From: Leptotrichia sp. oral taxon 847
GTDB lineage: Bacteria > Fusobacteriota > Fusobacteriia > Fusobacteriales > Leptotrichiaceae
Reading direction: 5' to 3'
Assembly: GCF_001553645.1 (NCBI RefSeq)
Contig: NZ_CP014231.1
Coordinates: 1,054,001 to 1,118,000 of the forward strand
Length of the DNA stretch: 64,000 nt
The translations under genes and the position numbers were made by a program. Position 1 is the stretch's first letter. Each line of letters begins with the position of its first letter. Under the pieces are notes generated by a model. That model saw only the letters and a program-made list of their open reading frames with translations, was not told the origin of the DNA and did no database searches. Shown here piece by piece: positions 1,916 through 30,738 of the stretch.

Positions 1916-2377
1916 TTATCCCAAAATATATCTTTTGAATAAAAAACTCAACATTATTCCCAAAACAGTTCCCCAAAATACTTCTAGCGGAGTATGTCCC
2001 AAAAGTTCTTTAAATTTTTCGTTTATTATTTCTATTCCTTCTCTGTGTTCTATCGCTTCTATCAGTGTATTTAATGCTTTTGCATGTTTTCCTGCTTGGC
2101 GTCTAACTCCAGTCGCATCATACAAGACAATTCCTGCAAACACCATCGAAATTGCAAATTCTATGGAAGCAGCGCCTTTTATTAAAAATACTCCTGTTGC
2201 AAGTGAAACAACTGTCGAAGCGTGAGAACTTGGCATTCCACCTGTTTGAATTAACCTTCCCCATTGTGGTCTTCTTCCCTTAAATACGGGAAAAAATACT
2301 TTGTAAAACTGCGCCGAAAAACAAGATATTGCTGCAACATCCAAAAGTCTATTTCCAAATAATATTCCTACACTCAT
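1916..2377 (-). CDS. Divergent PAP2 family protein (DUF212, YuiD-like)
   Basis: This is a small integral membrane protein of 153 aa. The hallmark motifs of the DUF212/YuiD family are visible: GGMPSSHAS near residue 46 and YDATGVRRQAGKHA near residue 105. They correspond to the phosphate-binding motifs of PAP2 phosphatases in a divergent form. Hydrophobic segments surround these motifs and one lies at the C-terminus. The substrate is unknown; related proteins have been proposed to act on lipid phosphates. It sits 14 bp after yhbY and 82 bp before thrS, in the same transcription direction. The family call is firm, the function is not. Confidence 0.88.
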   Translation of the reverse strand: MSVGILFGNRLLDVAAISCFSAQFYKVFFPVFKGRRPQWGRLIQTGGMPSSHASTVVSLATGVFLIKGAASIEFAISMVFAGIVLYDATGVRRQAGKHAKALNTLIEAIEHREGIEIINEKFKELLGHTPLEVFWGTVLGIMLSFLFKRYILG

Positions 2378-2391
2378 TTACTCTTCCTTTT

Positions 2392-2730
2392 CTAATTTTT
2401 GTTTTTTTTCTTTTTAAACTCATTCAATTCAGGTGTAATCACTGCATCCTTTGTACTCTTAGGTTTAAAAAATATAAGCACATTTCCAATTTTATCCACA
2501 AAAATCGATTTTGTATTTTTTGCAATTTCATTTACTAATTCTATGTCAAATTTTACTGCTGAATTTTGTAATATTTTTACTTTTATTAATTCTCTTTTTT
2601 TTACAACTTCGGCAATGCTTTTTAGGACATTCTCATCCATTCCCTCTTTCCCTATTCTTACAACAGGAGTAAGACCATGTGCCAATTTTCTCAAAAAAGC
2701 TCTTTCTTTACTTGAAAGTTGTTGTGCCAT
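2392..2730 (-). CDS. yhbY: Ribosome assembly RNA-binding protein YhbY (CRM domain)
   Basis: This 112-aa protein consists of one CRM domain. It starts SSKERAFLRKLAHGL and carries the VVRIGKEG loop typical of YhbY, then the KKRELIKVKIL core strand. Members associate with pre-50S particles and take part in ribosome assembly in the cytoplasm. A Lys-rich tail (FKKKKNKN) follows the fold and may bind RNA. The gene lies 34 bp downstream of rnj and 14 bp upstream of the DUF212 gene. The ATG at 2730 is the only plausible start for the full domain. Confidence 0.92.
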   Translation of the reverse strand: MAQQLSSKERAFLRKLAHGLTPVVRIGKEGMDENVLKSIAEVVKKRELIKVKILQNSAVKFDIELVNEIAKNTKSIFVDKIGNVLIFFKPKSTKDAVITPELNEFKKKKNKN

Positions 2731-2764
2731 TCTTTTTAGTTACTCTACGTAACATCCTCCTTTT

Positions 2765-4651
2765 TTAGTTATCCATAATTATTGGTAAAATTATTGGATC
2801 TCTATCAGTTGCTCTAATTAAGAAATCCCCAATTTTTACTCTAATTCTCTGTTTTATCTTTCCAATTTCTTTTACCTTTTCACTTTCCAAAACACAAAGT
2901 TCTTTTTTCACTAATTCTTTTGTTTTAGAAAGTAAGCTTTCAGCGTCTTTATTGTATACAAATCCCCTTGTAACAAGTTCCACATTTTTATTAAAAGTTC
3001 CATTTTTGTATTTTAAAATAGAAATAATTACTATTCCATCGTCCGCTAAATTCTGTCTGTCTTTTAAAACGGCATTTCCTACGTCGCCTATTCCAAATCC
3101 ATCAATGAATGTTGCTCCACTTGGCACTCTTCCAACTTGTCTAAAATTACTTCTGGAAAGTTCAAATTTTGCTCCATTTTCAGCTAAAAGTACATTTTTT
3201 CCTTCAACTCCCACAGCAACTGCAAGTTCTTTATGTTTTTTAATCATTGCATATTCCCCATGGACTGGCAAGAAAAATTTTGGTTTTACAAGATTTATCA
3301 TAAGTTTCTGCTCTTCTTGGCAGCCGTGCCCCGATACGTGAATACCAATTCCTTTTTCAAATACAACACTAGCATCCCGTTTCATCAATTGATTGATATT
3401 TTTTGTTGCAGCTTTCTCATTTCCTGGAATAGGTGTCGCCGAAATCACAACTGTATCTCCTTGTCTTAACGTTATATATTTATGAGTTCCATTTGCGATT
3501 CTTGAAAGTGCCGCAAGTGGCTCTCCCTGAGTTCCAGTACATAAAATTAGCACTTTATCTGCTGGATGTGTTTCCACTTTTTCAATATCTATCATTATAT
3601 CTTTCGGAAGTTTTAAATATCCTAACTCTGAACAAATTTCAAATATTTTAATCATACTTCTTCCATCAATCGCAATCTTTCTTCCATGAGAATGAGCAAT
3701 ATTTACAATCTGTTGCAATCTATGAACGTGTGATGCAAATGCCGCAAGTATAATTCTTCCTTTTGCTTTTGAAAATTCATCTTTCAAGCTTTCCCCAACA
3801 GTTCTCTCAGATGGTGTGAATCCAGGAATTTGTGCATTTGTACTATCCGACAAAAGTAAATCTACCCCTTCTTCTCCAAGTTGCGCAAGTCTTCCGAAAT
3901 CAAATCCTTCTCCGTCGACAGGCGTCAAATCCACTTTAAAATCTCCCGAGTGCAAGATCGTCGCAGCCGGCGTTTTTATGCAAATAGCATAGCAATCAGC
4001 AATACTGTGCGTAACGCTTATAAATTCCACTGTAAAATATTTTGAAATTTTTAAAATATTTCTTCCAGTTATAACTTTTTCTTTTGGAAGTTTTGCATCT
4101 TTTTTCTCAAATTTTGCTTTTGCAAGTGCCAAAGTCAATTTTCCACCATACATCGGTATATTTTCCGTTCCCAATTTTTGATAAAAATATGGCACTGCTC
4201 CAATATGATCTTCGTGTCCGTGTGTCAAAAGTAATCCTTTAATTTTATTCTTATTTGCTTCTAAATACGCAAAATCAGGTATTATGACATCTATTCCCAA
4301 ATGTTCGTCTTCTGGGAATGTAAGTCCCGCATCTACTACGATTATTTCGTCTTTATATTGAAACGCTGTCATATTTTTCCCGACTTCTTCCAATCCCCCC
4401 AATGGAATTACATACATTTTTTCATCTCTTGTTTCATCTTTAAAATTTTTTTTGTCAACATGTCTATTTCTATTGTTTGCAAGCGGAACATATCTAGTTT
4501 CGTTTTTTTCATCTAAATGTCTTCTATTTGTGTTTTTTCTTCTGAATCTTTTTAAATTGGATTTTATTTTATTTGTATCCTCTTTTTTTGAAAAGTATCT
4601 TTTTATTGTTGAATTTGAATTTCCTGCTTCTCTTTTTTCTCTATCTGACAT
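2765..4651 (-). CDS. rnj: Ribonuclease J
   Basis: Ribonuclease J is a metallo-beta-lactamase/beta-CASP nuclease for mRNA decay and rRNA maturation, with both 5' exonuclease and endonuclease activity. The 628-aa product shows the metal-binding motif THGHEDHIG, HSIADC, GDFKVD, the beta-CASP region and the C-terminal histidine motif SGHG. An N-terminal extension of about 75 residues, rich in Lys, Arg and Asn, precedes the catalytic fold (MYVIPLGGLEEVGKN). It is longer than in typical firmicute RNase J and looks like a flexible RNA-binding tail. The ATG at 4651 has a strong AGGAGGTG site. The gene lies 43 bp downstream of mrdA. Confidence 0.95.
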   Translation of the reverse strand: MSDREKREAGNSNSTIKRYFSKKEDTNKIKSNLKRFRRKNTNRRHLDEKNETRYVPLANNRNRHVDKKNFKDETRDEKMYVIPLGGLEEVGKNMTAFQYKDEIIVVDAGLTFPEDEHLGIDVIIPDFAYLEANKNKIKGLLLTHGHEDHIGAVPYFYQKLGTENIPMYGGKLTLALAKAKFEKKDAKLPKEKVITGRNILKISKYFTVEFISVTHSIADCYAICIKTPAATILHSGDFKVDLTPVDGEGFDFGRLAQLGEEGVDLLLSDSTNAQIPGFTPSERTVGESLKDEFSKAKGRIILAAFASHVHRLQQIVNIAHSHGRKIAIDGRSMIKIFEICSELGYLKLPKDIMIDIEKVETHPADKVLILCTGTQGEPLAALSRIANGTHKYITLRQGDTVVISATPIPGNEKAATKNINQLMKRDASVVFEKGIGIHVSGHGCQEEQKLMINLVKPKFFLPVHGEYAMIKKHKELAVAVGVEGKNVLLAENGAKFELSRSNFRQVGRVPSGATFIDGFGIGDVGNAVLKDRQNLADDGIVIISILKYKNGTFNKNVELVTRGFVYNKDAESLLSKTKELVKKELCVLESEKVKEIGKIKQRIRVKIGDFLIRATDRDPIILPIIMDN

Positions 4652-28381: not shown

Positions 28382-28667
28382 TTATCTCAAAAAATCTTTT
28401 TGAATTTTTTTCAAATTTCTATCTATATCTTTTCTTTTCAAAGTTTCCCTTTTATCGTGAAGTTTTTTCCCTTTTGCAAGTGCAATTTCCACCTTTACTA
28501 ACCTTTTTTTTGTATAAACTGAAAGTGGTACAATTGTGTAACCTTGTTCTTTAATCTTGGATTCCCATTTATTGATTTCTCTTCGACTCAAAAGTAATTT
28601 TCTCACTCTTGACTCTGGCACATTGTTAATATTTCCAAATTCGTAAGGTGTTATGTGCATATTCATT
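28382..28667 (-). CDS. smpB: SmpB, 3' exon (split by an IStron)
   Basis: SmpB binds tmRNA and is essential for rescue of stalled ribosomes by trans-translation. This segment encodes the C-terminal two thirds of the family: [63 protein letters not shown] and a basic tail. The first ATG in frame (28666) would give only 94 aa without the conserved N-terminal tmRNA-binding strands. Those are found 1.9 kb upstream at 30578-30738. Joining 30578 to 28667 restores one open frame of 148 aa reading NEVFI-MNMHI across the junction. No ribosome binding site needed for separate initiation is convincing. Confidence 0.92.
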
Positions 28668-28760
28668 CTGAACCTCCCATTTCTTACGTCATGGGGTTCT
28701 AAAATCTTTAAAAATATTCAAAAATTTTCTAAGAAGTTTGATAGCTTTACACTACCCTTA
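28668..28760 (-). ncRNA. Predicted omega-RNA scaffold and right-end hairpin of the IStron
   Basis: The segment from the end of tnpB to the element boundary contains a nested hairpin: outer arms AACC/GGTT around CCAT/ATGG, at 28670-28701. By analogy with studied TnpB systems, the omega-RNA would end here and take its guide from the flanking DNA, i.e. the smpB 3' exon beginning AATGAATATGC. The 5' end of the RNA is not visible from sequence. Confidence 0.5.
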
Positions 28761-29994
28761 TTCTTTTAGGCGTGTTCAGCTCACCTCTATTGTATAGGAC
28801 GCTTAAGTCCACAACTTTACTTTTTCTTAATATGTTTAATGCTCCATTACAATCTGCATTTATGAGTTTACCTTTTTTTGTTTGATATAGTCCTCTTTTT
28901 ATCCTTTTTCCACTGAATACATATTCTTGTAGATTTTCTTTATCATATATTGGAATTTCATCTCCATCAAAGAAACTTGCTTTTGATGTATAACTTTCTT
29001 CTTGTAGTTTAAATTCTATTCCATATAGTTTACATAGATATATTAATTTATCTCTTAATTTTCTATATGGTATATTTACAAAATTTTGATTATTTATACT
29101 TCCTATATTTGAATTTCTTTGAAAGTCCTCATTATATCCTAGAACTAGTTTTCCTATATCATTATTAAGACAATAATTTATTATTATTCTTGCTGCTTTT
29201 GAAAGATAATCTTCTATGCGATTATTTCGCCTTCTAGCTATTCTCTTTTGCCTTAATGTTGTGCATTCAGTCTTTTGTTTATCTTTTATACTTTGTAATT
29301 TTGCATTTATCTTATTATAGTATTGATTAATAGATTTTAATTTTCTACCGTCTATTAGGAATGAAGCTCCAGCATTAGTTACACAAGTACAAAGATTATC
29401 TATACCTAAATCTATTCCTAGTCCATTTTCTTTATTTAATTCCCTTTGAACTTCTTCTACTTCATAAGTATATTGAATTTCAAAGTACCTAGAATGTTGT
29501 TTAGGTATTATTCTAATCTCCTTTATCTTCTTGTCTTTTAATATTGGCGGTAGTTTTATTGCGATTTCCTCATGTGTCTTTCTAAATGAATTTGAATAAG
29601 GAACTATCAGAATATCATCTTTTAATCTAACAAATCCTATAACAAGAGTTGTAAAACCATCCTTAGCAAGATATTTAGGTAATTTTATTTTTTTAATATC
29701 ATATTGACCATTTTTAGCAAGTTTTAAAAGTCCAAAAAATGATTTAAAACTTCCGTCTGCTTCTTTTAGAATTTGTTGAGCCATATTAGAATTTAACTTC
29801 TTATAGTTCTCACTATTTTTAAGCATTTTATAGTTTTCATTATAACTTAAATACTTTTTCTTATTAAAATAGTATTGTCTAACATTATATATAGCTTCAT
29901 TAGTTAAGTTCTTGGCTATATGAGATAAATATTTTAAATTTCTAAACTCCTTTTTACTAAGATGTTTTACCTGTTGTTTTAATGTTAAATACAT
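28747..29994 (-). CDS. tnpB: TnpB, RNA-guided nuclease of IS200/IS605/IStron type
   Basis: TnpB proteins use an omega-RNA from the element's right end to cut DNA next to a target-adjacent motif. This 415-aa protein has the N-terminal helical part and a RuvC-like nuclease with the three acidic residues D195 (GLGIDLGIDN), E289 (LVLGYNED) and D381 (NADCNGALN). The family motif ESYTSKASFFDGDEIP at about 333-348 sits where many TnpBs carry a CxxC zinc ribbon. The expected cysteines are absent, so this belongs to a zinc-ribbon-less branch or has lost it. The ATG at 29994 has a strong GGAGGTGA site. It lies within the 3' peripheral part of the group I intron. Confidence 0.92.
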   Translation of the reverse strand: MYLTLKQQVKHLSKKEFRNLKYLSHIAKNLTNEAIYNVRQYYFNKKKYLSYNENYKMLKNSENYKKLNSNMAQQILKEADGSFKSFFGLLKLAKNGQYDIKKIKLPKYLAKDGFTTLVIGFVRLKDDILIVPYSNSFRKTHEEIAIKLPPILKDKKIKEIRIIPKQHSRYFEIQYTYEVEEVQRELNKENGLGIDLGIDNLCTCVTNAGASFLIDGRKLKSINQYYNKINAKLQSIKDKQKTECTTLRQKRIARRRNNRIEDYLSKAARIIINYCLNNDIGKLVLGYNEDFQRNSNIGSINNQNFVNIPYRKLRDKLIYLCKLYGIEFKLQEESYTSKASFFDGDEIPIYDKENLQEYVFSGKRIKRGLYQTKKGKLINADCNGALNILRKSKVVDLSVLYNRGELNTPKRIRVV

Positions 29995-30022
29995 ATATAA
30001 TCACCTCCTTTTCATCAGAGAT

Positions 30023-30028
30023 ATTATA
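30023..30028 (-). promoter_or_regulatory. Possible tnpB -10 element
   Basis: A TATAAT hexamer lies about 29 bp upstream of the tnpB ATG. No good -35 is present at 16-18 bp, so independent transcription is uncertain. Confidence 0.3.
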
Positions 30029-30100
30029 CTATATATTCTACATTTTAACTATCAAAAAGTAATATTTTTTATTTATTTTTAAATATTTTTAAAGTTTTTA

Positions 30101-30118
30101 AAACCCCACAACAGTGGG
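30101..30118 (-). terminator. Terminator-like hairpin between intron core and tnpB
   Basis: In the RNA, CCCAC-UGUU-GUGGG is followed by GUUUUAAAA. It sits directly after the intron core and about 110 nt before the tnpB start. The stem is short but GC-rich in an AT-rich context. It could attenuate transcription into tnpB, or be a structural peripheral stem of the intron. Confidence 0.4.
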
Positions 30119-30577
30119 AAGCGTCGTTCACATAAGTGCGCTACTACTTATGCAGTTCTCTTATGAACTTCTTGTTATCTCTAACAAGCACAGACTATAT
30201 CTTATCCATATCCTATTTCAAGGACTTAGGCGAAACCACTTCCAATACCAATCGCTTGTATTGTACTCCCCTCACGAGGGATAGTCGTTGAACTTTCCTT
30301 TTCAGGCTTAGCTGCTGATTGTCTATTATCATAATACTTAGGTTTTAACCTTATACCATCTAGTATATTTTTTCTGATTTCTCCACTATCACACTTGTAC
30401 CATATTTTAACGAAGATACTATGTTGTAGTTATACTAGCTTTAAGAGTTCCCAGCAATTCAGTTTCTTTGTTGCACAGTTCTTTCTGTGTCTACATACAA
30501 GTTTCCCTATATGCTTACTAAAATTCTCAAACAATTCATCTCACGACTAAAAGTCGCGAGTGTTCTTGCATTATTTA
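30105..30577 (-). ncRNA. Group I intron catalytic core of the IStron
   Basis: The coding-strand RNA contains the four conserved group I elements in order. P (AAUUGCUGGGAAC) is at 30459-30447, Q (AAUCAGCAGCUAAGCCUG) at 30320-30303, R (GUUCAACGACUA) at 30294-30283 and S (AAGAUAUAGUC) at 30203-30193. P4 forms between UUGCUG of P and CAGCAG of Q. P7 forms between GACUA of R and UAGUC of S, which are exact complements. A GUAAG at 30518-30514 can act as internal guide, pairing with UUUAU at the 5' exon end with the required G-U at the splice site. A hairpin CUUGUUA-GAGA-UAACAAG just after S fits P9. Splicing would ligate the smpB exons; the activity itself is inference. Confidence 0.92.
30540..30560. 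repeat. Left-end palindrome of the IStron
   Basis: The arms CTCACGACT and AGTCGCGAG (one mismatch, 3-nt loop) form the subterminal hairpin expected at the left end of IS200/IS605-family elements. It lies 17 nt inside the boundary. The flanking words CAATTCATCTC and TTCTTGC recur at the miniature element near 44.5 kb. Confidence 0.75.
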
Positions 30578-30738
30578 ATAAAAACTTCATTTCTTATAAT
30601 TCTTACGAAACTCTCTTTTATACTTATCTTACCAGCTTTTACAGATTTTACTTCTGTTCCCACAAGCTCGATTCCAGCCTCCAATTTTTCCTCTATAAAA
30701 TAGTCATGATACGCTTTTTTATTTTTTGCTAAAATCAT
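30578..30738 (-). CDS. smpB: SmpB, 5' exon (split by an IStron)
   Basis: This exon encodes 53 codons plus two bases of Smp[40 protein letters not shown] and [15 protein letters not shown]. These are the conserved N-terminal strands and the tmRNA-contacting HDYFIEE-GTEVKS blocks. A GGGGGAAG ribosome binding site precedes the ATG at 30738. Without splicing, translation would run two codons into the element and stop at TAA 30573-30571, giving a 55-aa fragment. With splicing, the frame continues at 28667. The gene follows rnr and the small lipoprotein gene on the same strand; rnr-smpB linkage is common in bacteria. Confidence 0.92.

What the first reader, a model, noticed from the sequence alone, without database searches (positions are those of the whole stretch)
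28668..30577. An IStron (group I intron fused to a TnpB transposon) interrupts smpB
SmpB is split exactly in two; the 1,910-bp insert carries all four conserved group I core elements (P, Q, R, S) with complementary P4 and P7 strands, a tnpB gene, and IS200/IS605-type end hairpins. The only junction that satisfies 5' exon ending in U, intron ending in G, and an open SmpB frame gives NEVFI-MNMHI, which matches the family spacing. IStrons are known from Clostridium (for example CdISt1). I am not aware of one described in smpB of a fusobacterium-like host. The host gene is a core ribosome-rescue factor, so the element must splice or the cell must tolerate loss of trans-translation.
Basis: partly seen in the sequence, partly recalled or inferred. 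Interest (0 to 1): 0.95.

Follow-up and report, generated by a model that had tools for sequence, protein, structure and literature searches.

The report
Self-splicing transposon inside bacterial smpB
A jumping gene that carries its own self-splicing intron sits inside the ribosome-rescue gene smpB of this bacterium, and comparison with dozens of sister copies, one of them inside the only replicative helicase gene of a related species, indicates that cells remove it from their RNA to keep such genes working.

Summary
A 1,910-bp element (28668-30577, minus strand) follows TTTAT, ends in TTCAG and splits smpB; a sister species has the exact empty site TTTAT|AATGAATATG, and the joined frame is a full 148-aa SmpB. 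The element is a group A IStron: its core matches Rfam RF00028 (53 bits; a whole-window scan missed it) and it carries an intact tnpB. The complete genome holds no second smpB, and tmRNA is intact.

Five more copies in the genome also lie in genes, in sense, with open joined frames. In the genus, 44 of 56 distinct sites lie in sense genes and 0 in antisense (strand-matched control P = 1e-3), against 3 of 17 intronless derivatives with similar ends (P = 9e-6). One sister species carries the element inside its only dnaB. So splicing in vivo is very likely, though no RNA was seen.

IStrons are known in Fusobacteria, Leptotrichia buccalis included (PMC4227781). This is a new member of a known kind in an unusual host gene.

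The parts
30578..30738 (-). smpB 5' exon (53 codons plus 2 nt), ends in TTTAT at 30578-30582
   Evidence: PF01668 in the joined protein
28668..30577 (-). IStron, 1,910 nt: group I intron plus tnpB; transposon ends and predicted splice sites coincide
   Evidence: alignment of six genomic copies; exact empty site in G006
28382..28667 (-). smpB 3' exon (1 nt of the split codon, 94 codons and stop)
30540..30560 (-). left-end hairpin (loop of P1)
   Evidence: pairs kept in 89% of cells over 53 copies
30514..30522 (-). internal guide strand UUUAGUAAG pairing with exon UUUAU and intron UAAA to give P1 with the splice-site U.G pair
   Evidence: (52-53 of 53 copies per pair)
30171..30518 (-). group I intron core (RF00028 match, model positions 1-253)
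   Evidence: (53.0 bits); pair counts
30122..30131 (-). stretch with the GAACGA motif after the last P9 hairpin, where the transposon part begins in published IStrons
   Evidence: published motif in PMC4227781 section 14
30075..30108 (-). left arm of a 34-nt inverted repeat that flanks tnpB
   Evidence: element 1853-1886 against the opposite strand, 91%
28747..29994 (-). tnpB, 415 aa; D195, E289, D381 of the RuvC site are kept in 50 of 50 copies with an ORF of 400 aa or more
   Evidence: residue roles recalled
28692..28725 (-). right arm of the 34-nt inverted repeat
   Evidence: element 470-503 against the opposite strand, 91%
28676..28695 (-). right-end hairpin before the terminal GGTTCAG

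Best explanation
A group A IStron inserted after TTTAT in the only smpB gene and is removed from the transcript by its group I ribozyme. Inferred steps: a Y1 transposase acting in trans (none is in the element; nine Y1 matches lie elsewhere in the genome) placed it without duplicating the target. In the RNA the exon end UUUAU pairs with the guide strand UUUAGUAAG, guanosine cuts after the U, and the core joins UUUAU to AAUGAAU to give a 447-nt smpB reading frame. Unspliced RNA stops translation 7 nt into the intron, so ribosomes do not run through the core. tnpB lies in a loop closed by a 34-nt inverted repeat and is expected to act as an RNA-guided nuclease whose guide is the 3' exon and whose adjacent motif is TTTAT, so that it would cut the empty smpB allele and favour retention. 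Shown here: boundaries, empty site, intron core, P1 and other helices, intact constrained tnpB, genus-wide bias. Inferred: splicing itself, transposition, guide function.
For: Exact empty site in G006. RF00028 found at six of six genomic copies, 4 over the 50-bit cut-off and 2 at 48.9 and 48.6. On 53 copies 98.6% of 4,564 pair cells are standard pairs against 36-44% for slid versions, and 54 cells carry changes on both sides against 9.9 in shuffles. Two IStron families in the genus differ in target and guide together: TTTAT with GUAAG, TTGAT with GUCAG. 47 of 59 copies in sense genes, 0 antisense, 44 of 56 distinct sites; 8 of 8 copies found of the second family are also sense; by the same rule only 3 of 17 intronless derivatives are. 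The only dnaB of G012 is split with profile positions 1-133 and 134-255 on either side (the third match there is RadA). smpB has a single copy and is constrained (dN 0.017, dS 0.211 to G006). TnpB of 400 aa or more in 50 of 59 copies, median dN/dS 0.17.
Against: No RNA evidence of any kind. Two of five pair measures do not beat shuffles (pairs with a change on both sides 43/500; pair types 272/500), and the core is so conserved that most pairs never vary. The single-sequence fold is only modestly stable (z -1.95). The sense bias is largely gene-strand bias: against all TTTAT sites P is 5e-18 (flanks) or 8e-21 (window), against strand-matched sites 5e-4, and 1e-3 once repeated sites are dropped. 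Three intronless derivatives do fall in the sense class. The smpB insertion is absent from the 12 other genomes of the genus, so it may be young, and dN/dS cannot show constraint after insertion. The genome has an RqcH-like (NFACT) gene, so loss of SmpB might be bearable.
Confidence: 0.88

Rival explanations
1. An ordinary IS200/IS605-type insertion with a dead or inefficient intron has inactivated smpB, and the cell tolerates loss of trans-translation, for example through an RqcH-like pathway.
For: No RNA evidence; the insertion is private to this genome among 13; an NFACT/RqcH-like gene is present.
Against: The intron core, P1 and the joined frame are intact; tmRNA is kept; sister copies lie in genes a cell can hardly lose, such as the only dnaB of G012; intronless derivatives are rare in genes, 3 of 17, and 0 of 17 with 20 codons or more on both sides, against 44 and 33 of 56.
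Confidence: 0.08
2. The sense bias reflects only where single-strand transposases insert (strand of replication, genes co-oriented), not selection for splicing.
For: In 8 of 8 of the 311-bp intronless derivatives the nearest upstream ORF is co-oriented, and neighbouring coding TTTAT sites on the element's strand are 434 sense to 76 antisense.
Against: With that control and distinct sites only, 0 antisense of 44 has P = 1e-3 and the sense share P = 1.6e-3; intronless elements with similar ends are much rarer in genes, 3 of 17 against 44 of 56 (Fisher P = 9e-6).
Confidence: 0.07
3. Splicing of the smpB copy works but is slow or conditional, so the element acts as a switch on ribosome rescue.
For: In the 44 distinct sense sites the unspliced frame stops 3, 7 or 41 nt into the intron, 7 in smpB, so SmpB output depends wholly on splicing; other sequence support was not sought.
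Against: The insertion is not shared with any of 12 relatives, so no conserved role is visible; regulatory features were not searched for.
Confidence: 0.1

Closest known systems
LbISt1 of Leptotrichia buccalis and the other group A IStrons (PMC4227781, Table 1)
   Same: By the paper's description of group A: IA2-type group I intron plus ORF B of IS200/IS605 type without a full ORF A, inserted after a T-rich pentamer, 3' end TCAG, GAACGA-like motif before the transposon part
   Different: 1,910 nt against 1,760 for LbISt1; six copies here (1 reported); 34-nt inverted repeat, longer than the 6-10 bp reported for group A; host gene smpB. The sequence of LbISt1 itself was not compared.
FnISt1 / the IStron of Fusobacterium nucleatum subsp. 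polymorphum (PMC1924603)
   Same: Intron followed by tlpB (tnpB), several copies per genome, same phylum if the host is a fusobacterium as I think
   Different: That one inserts after TTGAT; its authors predict one fully functional copy of five. The genus here also has a TTGAT family.
CdISt1 of Clostridioides difficile
   Same: First described IStron; a C. difficile plasmid record matches element 15-455 at 74.3% (no feature annotated there)
   Different: Some copies carry ORF A (PMC4227781); splicing was confirmed by experiment, not here. Its usual target TTGAT is recalled.
IS200/IS605 elements with TnpB
   Same: Ends, TnpB family (PF01385, PF07282), no target duplication
   Different: They lack the group I intron and do not splice (recalled).

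Membership tests
Group A IStron | Insertion after a T-rich pentamer (TTGAT, ATTAT or TTTAT) | tested here: met
   TTTAT in all six genomic copies and directly before TAAAT in 58 of 59 copies of the genus, the other having one extra T
Group A IStron | 3' end TCAG | tested here: met
   six of six genomic copies GGTTCAG; genus copies: 58 of 59 GGTTCAG, one GATTCAG
Group A IStron | No target duplication; exact empty site | tested here: met
   G006 smpB reads TTTAT-AATGAATATG
Group A IStron | Group I intron core, class IA2 (P7.1, P7.2, extended P9) | tested here: met
   RF00028 53.0 bits; P7.1 and P7.2 form standard pairs in 53 of 53 copies, and P9 and a second P9 hairpin are present. Class IA2 is my reading of those helices.
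Group A IStron | U at the 5' splice site in a U.G pair inside P1 | tested here: met
   53 of 53 copies
Group A IStron | IS200/IS605-type ORF B after a GAACGA-like motif | tested here: met
   GAACGA within 30122-30131; PF01385 and PF07282
Group A IStron | Short (6-10 bp) inverted repeat enclosing the ORF region | tested here: not met
   The repeat is 34 nt at 91% and AU-rich, closer to what PMC4227781 reports for group B. I treat this as a variant, since the paper calls it a more subtle difference and bases the groups on target site, boundaries and IS family.
Group A IStron | Self-splicing | not testable with these tools
   needs RNA
Group A IStron | Mobility | not testable with these tools
   Multiple copies at different sites imply past mobility only
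RNA-guided TnpB nuclease | RuvC D-E-D residues | tested here: met
   50 of 50 copies with an ORF of 400 aa or more; residue roles recalled
RNA-guided TnpB nuclease | Guide RNA made from the right end, cleavage of TTTAT-flanked target | not testable with these tools
   needs biochemistry

The most novel reading that the evidence does not exclude
In this genus a large set of core genes (DNA replication, repair, tRNA modification, ribosome rescue) is expressed only through self-splicing IStrons, in some genomes dozens per chromosome, so that splicing efficiency has become a general control on core gene output, with smpB splicing setting the level of ribosome rescue.
Probability: 0.12. Interest if true: 0.8.

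Novelty: new member of a known kind. Interest (0 to 1): 0.5.

Why it matters
The kind of element is known, but the setting makes open questions testable. The only smpB here and the only dnaB of a sister species depend on self-splicing, so splicing in vivo can be tested by viability, not only by RT-PCR. The genus offers a natural control: elements with similar ends but no intron, which are much rarer inside genes. Two IStron families that differ in target motif and guide strand together (TTTAT/GUAAG, TTGAT/GUCAG) show how transposon target choice and ribozyme recognition must change in step. It also warns that default scans can miss such genes: the Rfam scan of the whole window did, and this smpB reads as two broken ORFs.

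Tried and rejected
Rfam on the whole window (gathering) and on 2,051 bases (E up to 10) gave no group I hit; this looked like a refutation until 521 bases were scanned and the whole genome searched with RF00028. I take the misses for speed-filter effects on a long insert, not proven.

Orientation bias alone as proof of splicing: rejected as too strong after the strand-matched control. Frame restoration alone as proof of splicing: rejected, since exact insertion implies it. The start-codon case (guanylate kinase, L124) was rejected as proof, because a start inside the right end may serve.

A first control count, '0 of 8 intronless derivatives in genes', was withdrawn on checking. It used ORF overlap, not the joined-frame rule applied to the IStrons. 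By the same rule 2 of those 8 (L157, L158) count as sense, with the junction 0 and 14 codons from the start of the ORF (Fisher P = 0.005 against 44 of 56). Adding nine more with both ends gives 3 of 17. Six further loci with a left-end match but no right end close by (L160, L164, L166, L172, L027, L028) were left out, and L029 (a weak internal match) was not examined.

Phase of insertion: 27, 12 and 5 sites with 2, 0 and 1 nt of the split codon in the 5' exon, against 250, 279 and 115 for other sense TTTAT sites (P = 0.009); phase 1, where the stop is furthest (41 nt), was not significantly depleted (P = 0.41). Left as a weak lead.

That the genus is Leptotrichia is my guess from recall and from LbISt1, not a tool result.

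Full report
What is there. On the minus strand, smpB runs from 30738 to 30578, is interrupted by 1,910 nt (30577-28668), and resumes at 28667-28382. The joined frame gives 148 aa matching PF01668 over 2-142 of 143 positions. The window lies at 1054001-1118000 of a 2,194,935-base genome in one contig, completeness 100. No other smpB is in it: the two PF01668 matches are the two halves. A tmRNA match over the whole model, 157.9 bits, is present.

Empty site. All 12 other genomes of the genus that are held have an uninterrupted smpB. G009 also has TTTAT there; of the other 10, nine read TTTGT and one TTCGT. So the insertion is exact, has no target duplication and is private to this genome.

The element. 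Six full copies in this genome align end to end, all after TTTAT and all ending GGTTCAG. RF00028 matches six of six, 4 over the 50-bit cut-off and the others at 48.9 and 48.6 bits; the smpB copy scores 53.0. Scans of the whole window and of 2 kb had missed it. The P, Q, R and S strings are at 30447-30459, 30307-30320, 30282-30293 and 30193-30203. I wrote a structure from the smpB copy and counted it on 53 copies (59 with flanks, 6 dropped as 97.5% alike or more): 98.6% of 4,564 cells pair, 36-44% when slid; 54 cells change on both sides against a shuffled mean of 9.9 (0 of 500 shuffles reach it). Two measures do not beat shuffles: pairs with a change on both sides (43 of 500) and pair types (272 of 500). 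The compensated helices are P2.1, P8, the second P9 hairpin and, weakly, the left-end hairpin. The minimum-energy fold of the core alone is modest, z -1.95.

P1 and target. Exon UUUAU and intron UAAA pair with UUUAGUAAG (30514-30522), with the U.G at the splice site in 53 of 53 copies. A second IStron family in the genus inserts after TTGAT and has GUCAG in place of GUAAG: the middle pair changes from U-A to G-C in target and guide together. This is a natural compensatory test of P1.

TnpB. 415 aa, PF01385 (3.2e-28) and PF07282 (3.5e-8). An ORF of at least 400 aa is present in 50 of 59 copies; median dN/dS over 1,225 pairs of these is 0.17; the residues D195, E289 and D381 are kept in 50 of 50 (roles recalled). 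No transposase A is in the element; nine Y1 transposase matches are elsewhere in the genome; whether they move it was not tested. A 34-nt inverted repeat encloses tnpB, longer than the 6-10 bp that PMC4227781 gives for group A.

Where the copies sit. In this genome 6 of 6 lie in sense genes with open joined frames: by family search methylenetetrahydrofolate reductase and RecG and SmpB, and by my reading a U32-type peptidase, a radical SAM protein and a small membrane protein. In the genus, 8 of 13 genomes have a match to the intron (scored candidates were capped at 40 in G009, G011 and G012, so copy counts are lower bounds). I fetched 61 copies with flanks and analysed 59; L143 and L150 fell out of the script's rule for finding the left end. 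By one rule (joined ORF of at least 120 aa over the junction) 47 are sense, 0 antisense, 12 neither. Three repeat a site, leaving 44 sense and 12 neither among 56 distinct sites. Treated later, L150 is sense and L143 is 'neither' by the rule, though it lies in a gene already carrying two introns.

Controls. TTTAT sites in the window lie 196 sense, 329 antisense, 141 neither. That control ignores strand bias, so I used TTTAT sites on the element's own strand outside the host gene: 434 sense, 76 antisense, 238 neither, which gives P = 5e-4 for 0 antisense of 47 and 4e-4 for the sense share. With distinct sites only (424, 72, 224) these become 1.0e-3 and 1.6e-3. The second control is elements with similar ends and no intron core: 8 of about 311 bp, 7 of 45 bp and 2 of about 260 bp. 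No ORF of 80 aa or more overlaps any of the 8, but by the joined-frame rule 2 of the 8 count as sense because they lie at the very start of an ORF, and 3 of the 17 in all, against 44 of 56 IStrons (Fisher P = 9e-6). Requiring 20 codons or more on both sides gives 0 of 17 against 33 of 56 (P = 8e-6). The left end of many of these reads TTTAT|GAAATA and not TTTAT|TAAATA, so they are relatives, not simple deletions of the present element. In 8 of 8 of the 311-bp class the nearest upstream ORF is co-oriented, so orientation alone is not proof.

Genes that must work. In G012, DnaB is split with profile positions 1-133 before and 134-255 after the element. A third match there, 32.6 bits and over the family cut-off of 27, is RadA (TIGR00416, 519.5 bits), so no intact DnaB was found. 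Other joined hosts confirmed by family search are RuvB, QueA, NagB, guanylate kinase, MutL, Mfd and, in the second family, TopA and DprA. The second family is 8 of 8 sense among the copies found. Apart from smpB, only dnaB and guanylate kinase were checked for a second copy; the guanylate kinase case splits the start codon and is not decisive.

Translation. In the 44 distinct sense sites the unspliced frame stops 3, 7 or 41 nt into the intron; in smpB it is 7. Stopping before the core agrees with the explanation given in PMC4227781 (section 20, part 1).

Is smpB constrained? To G006 dN is 0.017 and dS 0.211. This covers time before the insertion too, so it does not date or prove constraint after it. 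An NFACT (RqcH-like) gene is present, so loss of SmpB might be survivable.

Known or new. In the 2014 survey, IStrons were found in Firmicutes and Fusobacteria only, 16 elements, with LbISt1 in Leptotrichia buccalis at one copy; 58% of 202 sites were intragenic and 54% of those in frame (PMC4227781; passages and sections 14, 15, 17 and part 1 of section 20 read). The F. nucleatum polymorphum genome paper describes five copies after TTGAT (PMC1924603; passages read). The intron-against-guide-RNA conflict (Science 2024, doi 10.1126/science.adm8189) is recalled; I saw only its citation, and the paper is not held. Searches for group I intron with smpB (4 papers) and for Leptotrichia with IStron (1 paper) showed no paper on an interrupted smpB, judged from titles and abstract starts and, for PMC4227781, from its main text (smpB 0 times); that covers the held library only, and its supplementary table of host genes was not seen. 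A Finegoldia magna plasmid has a related element, 85% of the query at 73.6%, with R- and S-like strings.

Verdict. A well-formed group A IStron, very probably spliced in vivo, in an unusual and telling gene. New member of a known kind; the genus-wide pattern is the more valuable result.

Noticed in passing
L173-L179 (G009, G011, G001): A second IStron family, TTGAT|TAAAAAT...GGTTCAG, 8 copies found, 8 of 8 in sense genes including topA and dprA; its guide strand is GUCAG where the first family has GUAAG.
   Followed up: partly
L143 (G012), L181 (G011), L180 (G007): A gene that I read as precorrin-6A reductase (cbiJ-like) is cut in L143 and L181 by two short group I introns without ORFs, the second after TTGAT; L180 shows the same motif pair but was not read. 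In G012 a full IStron also lies at 2001-3900 of L143, which would make three introns in one bacterial gene.
   Followed up: partly
L148 at 2001-2520 (G011) and L135 at 2001-3172 of its reverse strand (G009): Shortened IStrons of 520 and 1,172 nt that keep the intron and the right end but lack a full tnpB.
   Followed up: no
G000:875208-875519 and L153-L159; L162, L163, L165, L167, L168, L169, L171; L161, L170: Intronless relatives with both ends of the element: 8 of about 311 bp, 7 of only 45 bp (left hairpin fused to the right end) and 2 of about 260 bp; 3 of 17 touch a sense ORF by the rule used for IStrons.
   Followed up: yes
L112, L124, L130: IStrons that split a start codon: TTTAT|G restores ATG on joining; L124 is guanylate kinase.
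   Followed up: partly
L121, L131 and L139, L149; L110, L126 and L141: QueA is a host at three different positions, one of them shared by two species (L121 by family search, the others by my reading); the NagB site is shared by three species.
   Followed up: no
L191 (Finegoldia magna plasmid pFMC): A related element with intron core strings and tnpB in an annotated plasmid; only TnpB is annotated.
   Followed up: partly
window 30120-30600: Whole-window and 2-kb Rfam scans miss this group I intron although it scores over the cut-off when a short stretch is scanned.
   Followed up: yes
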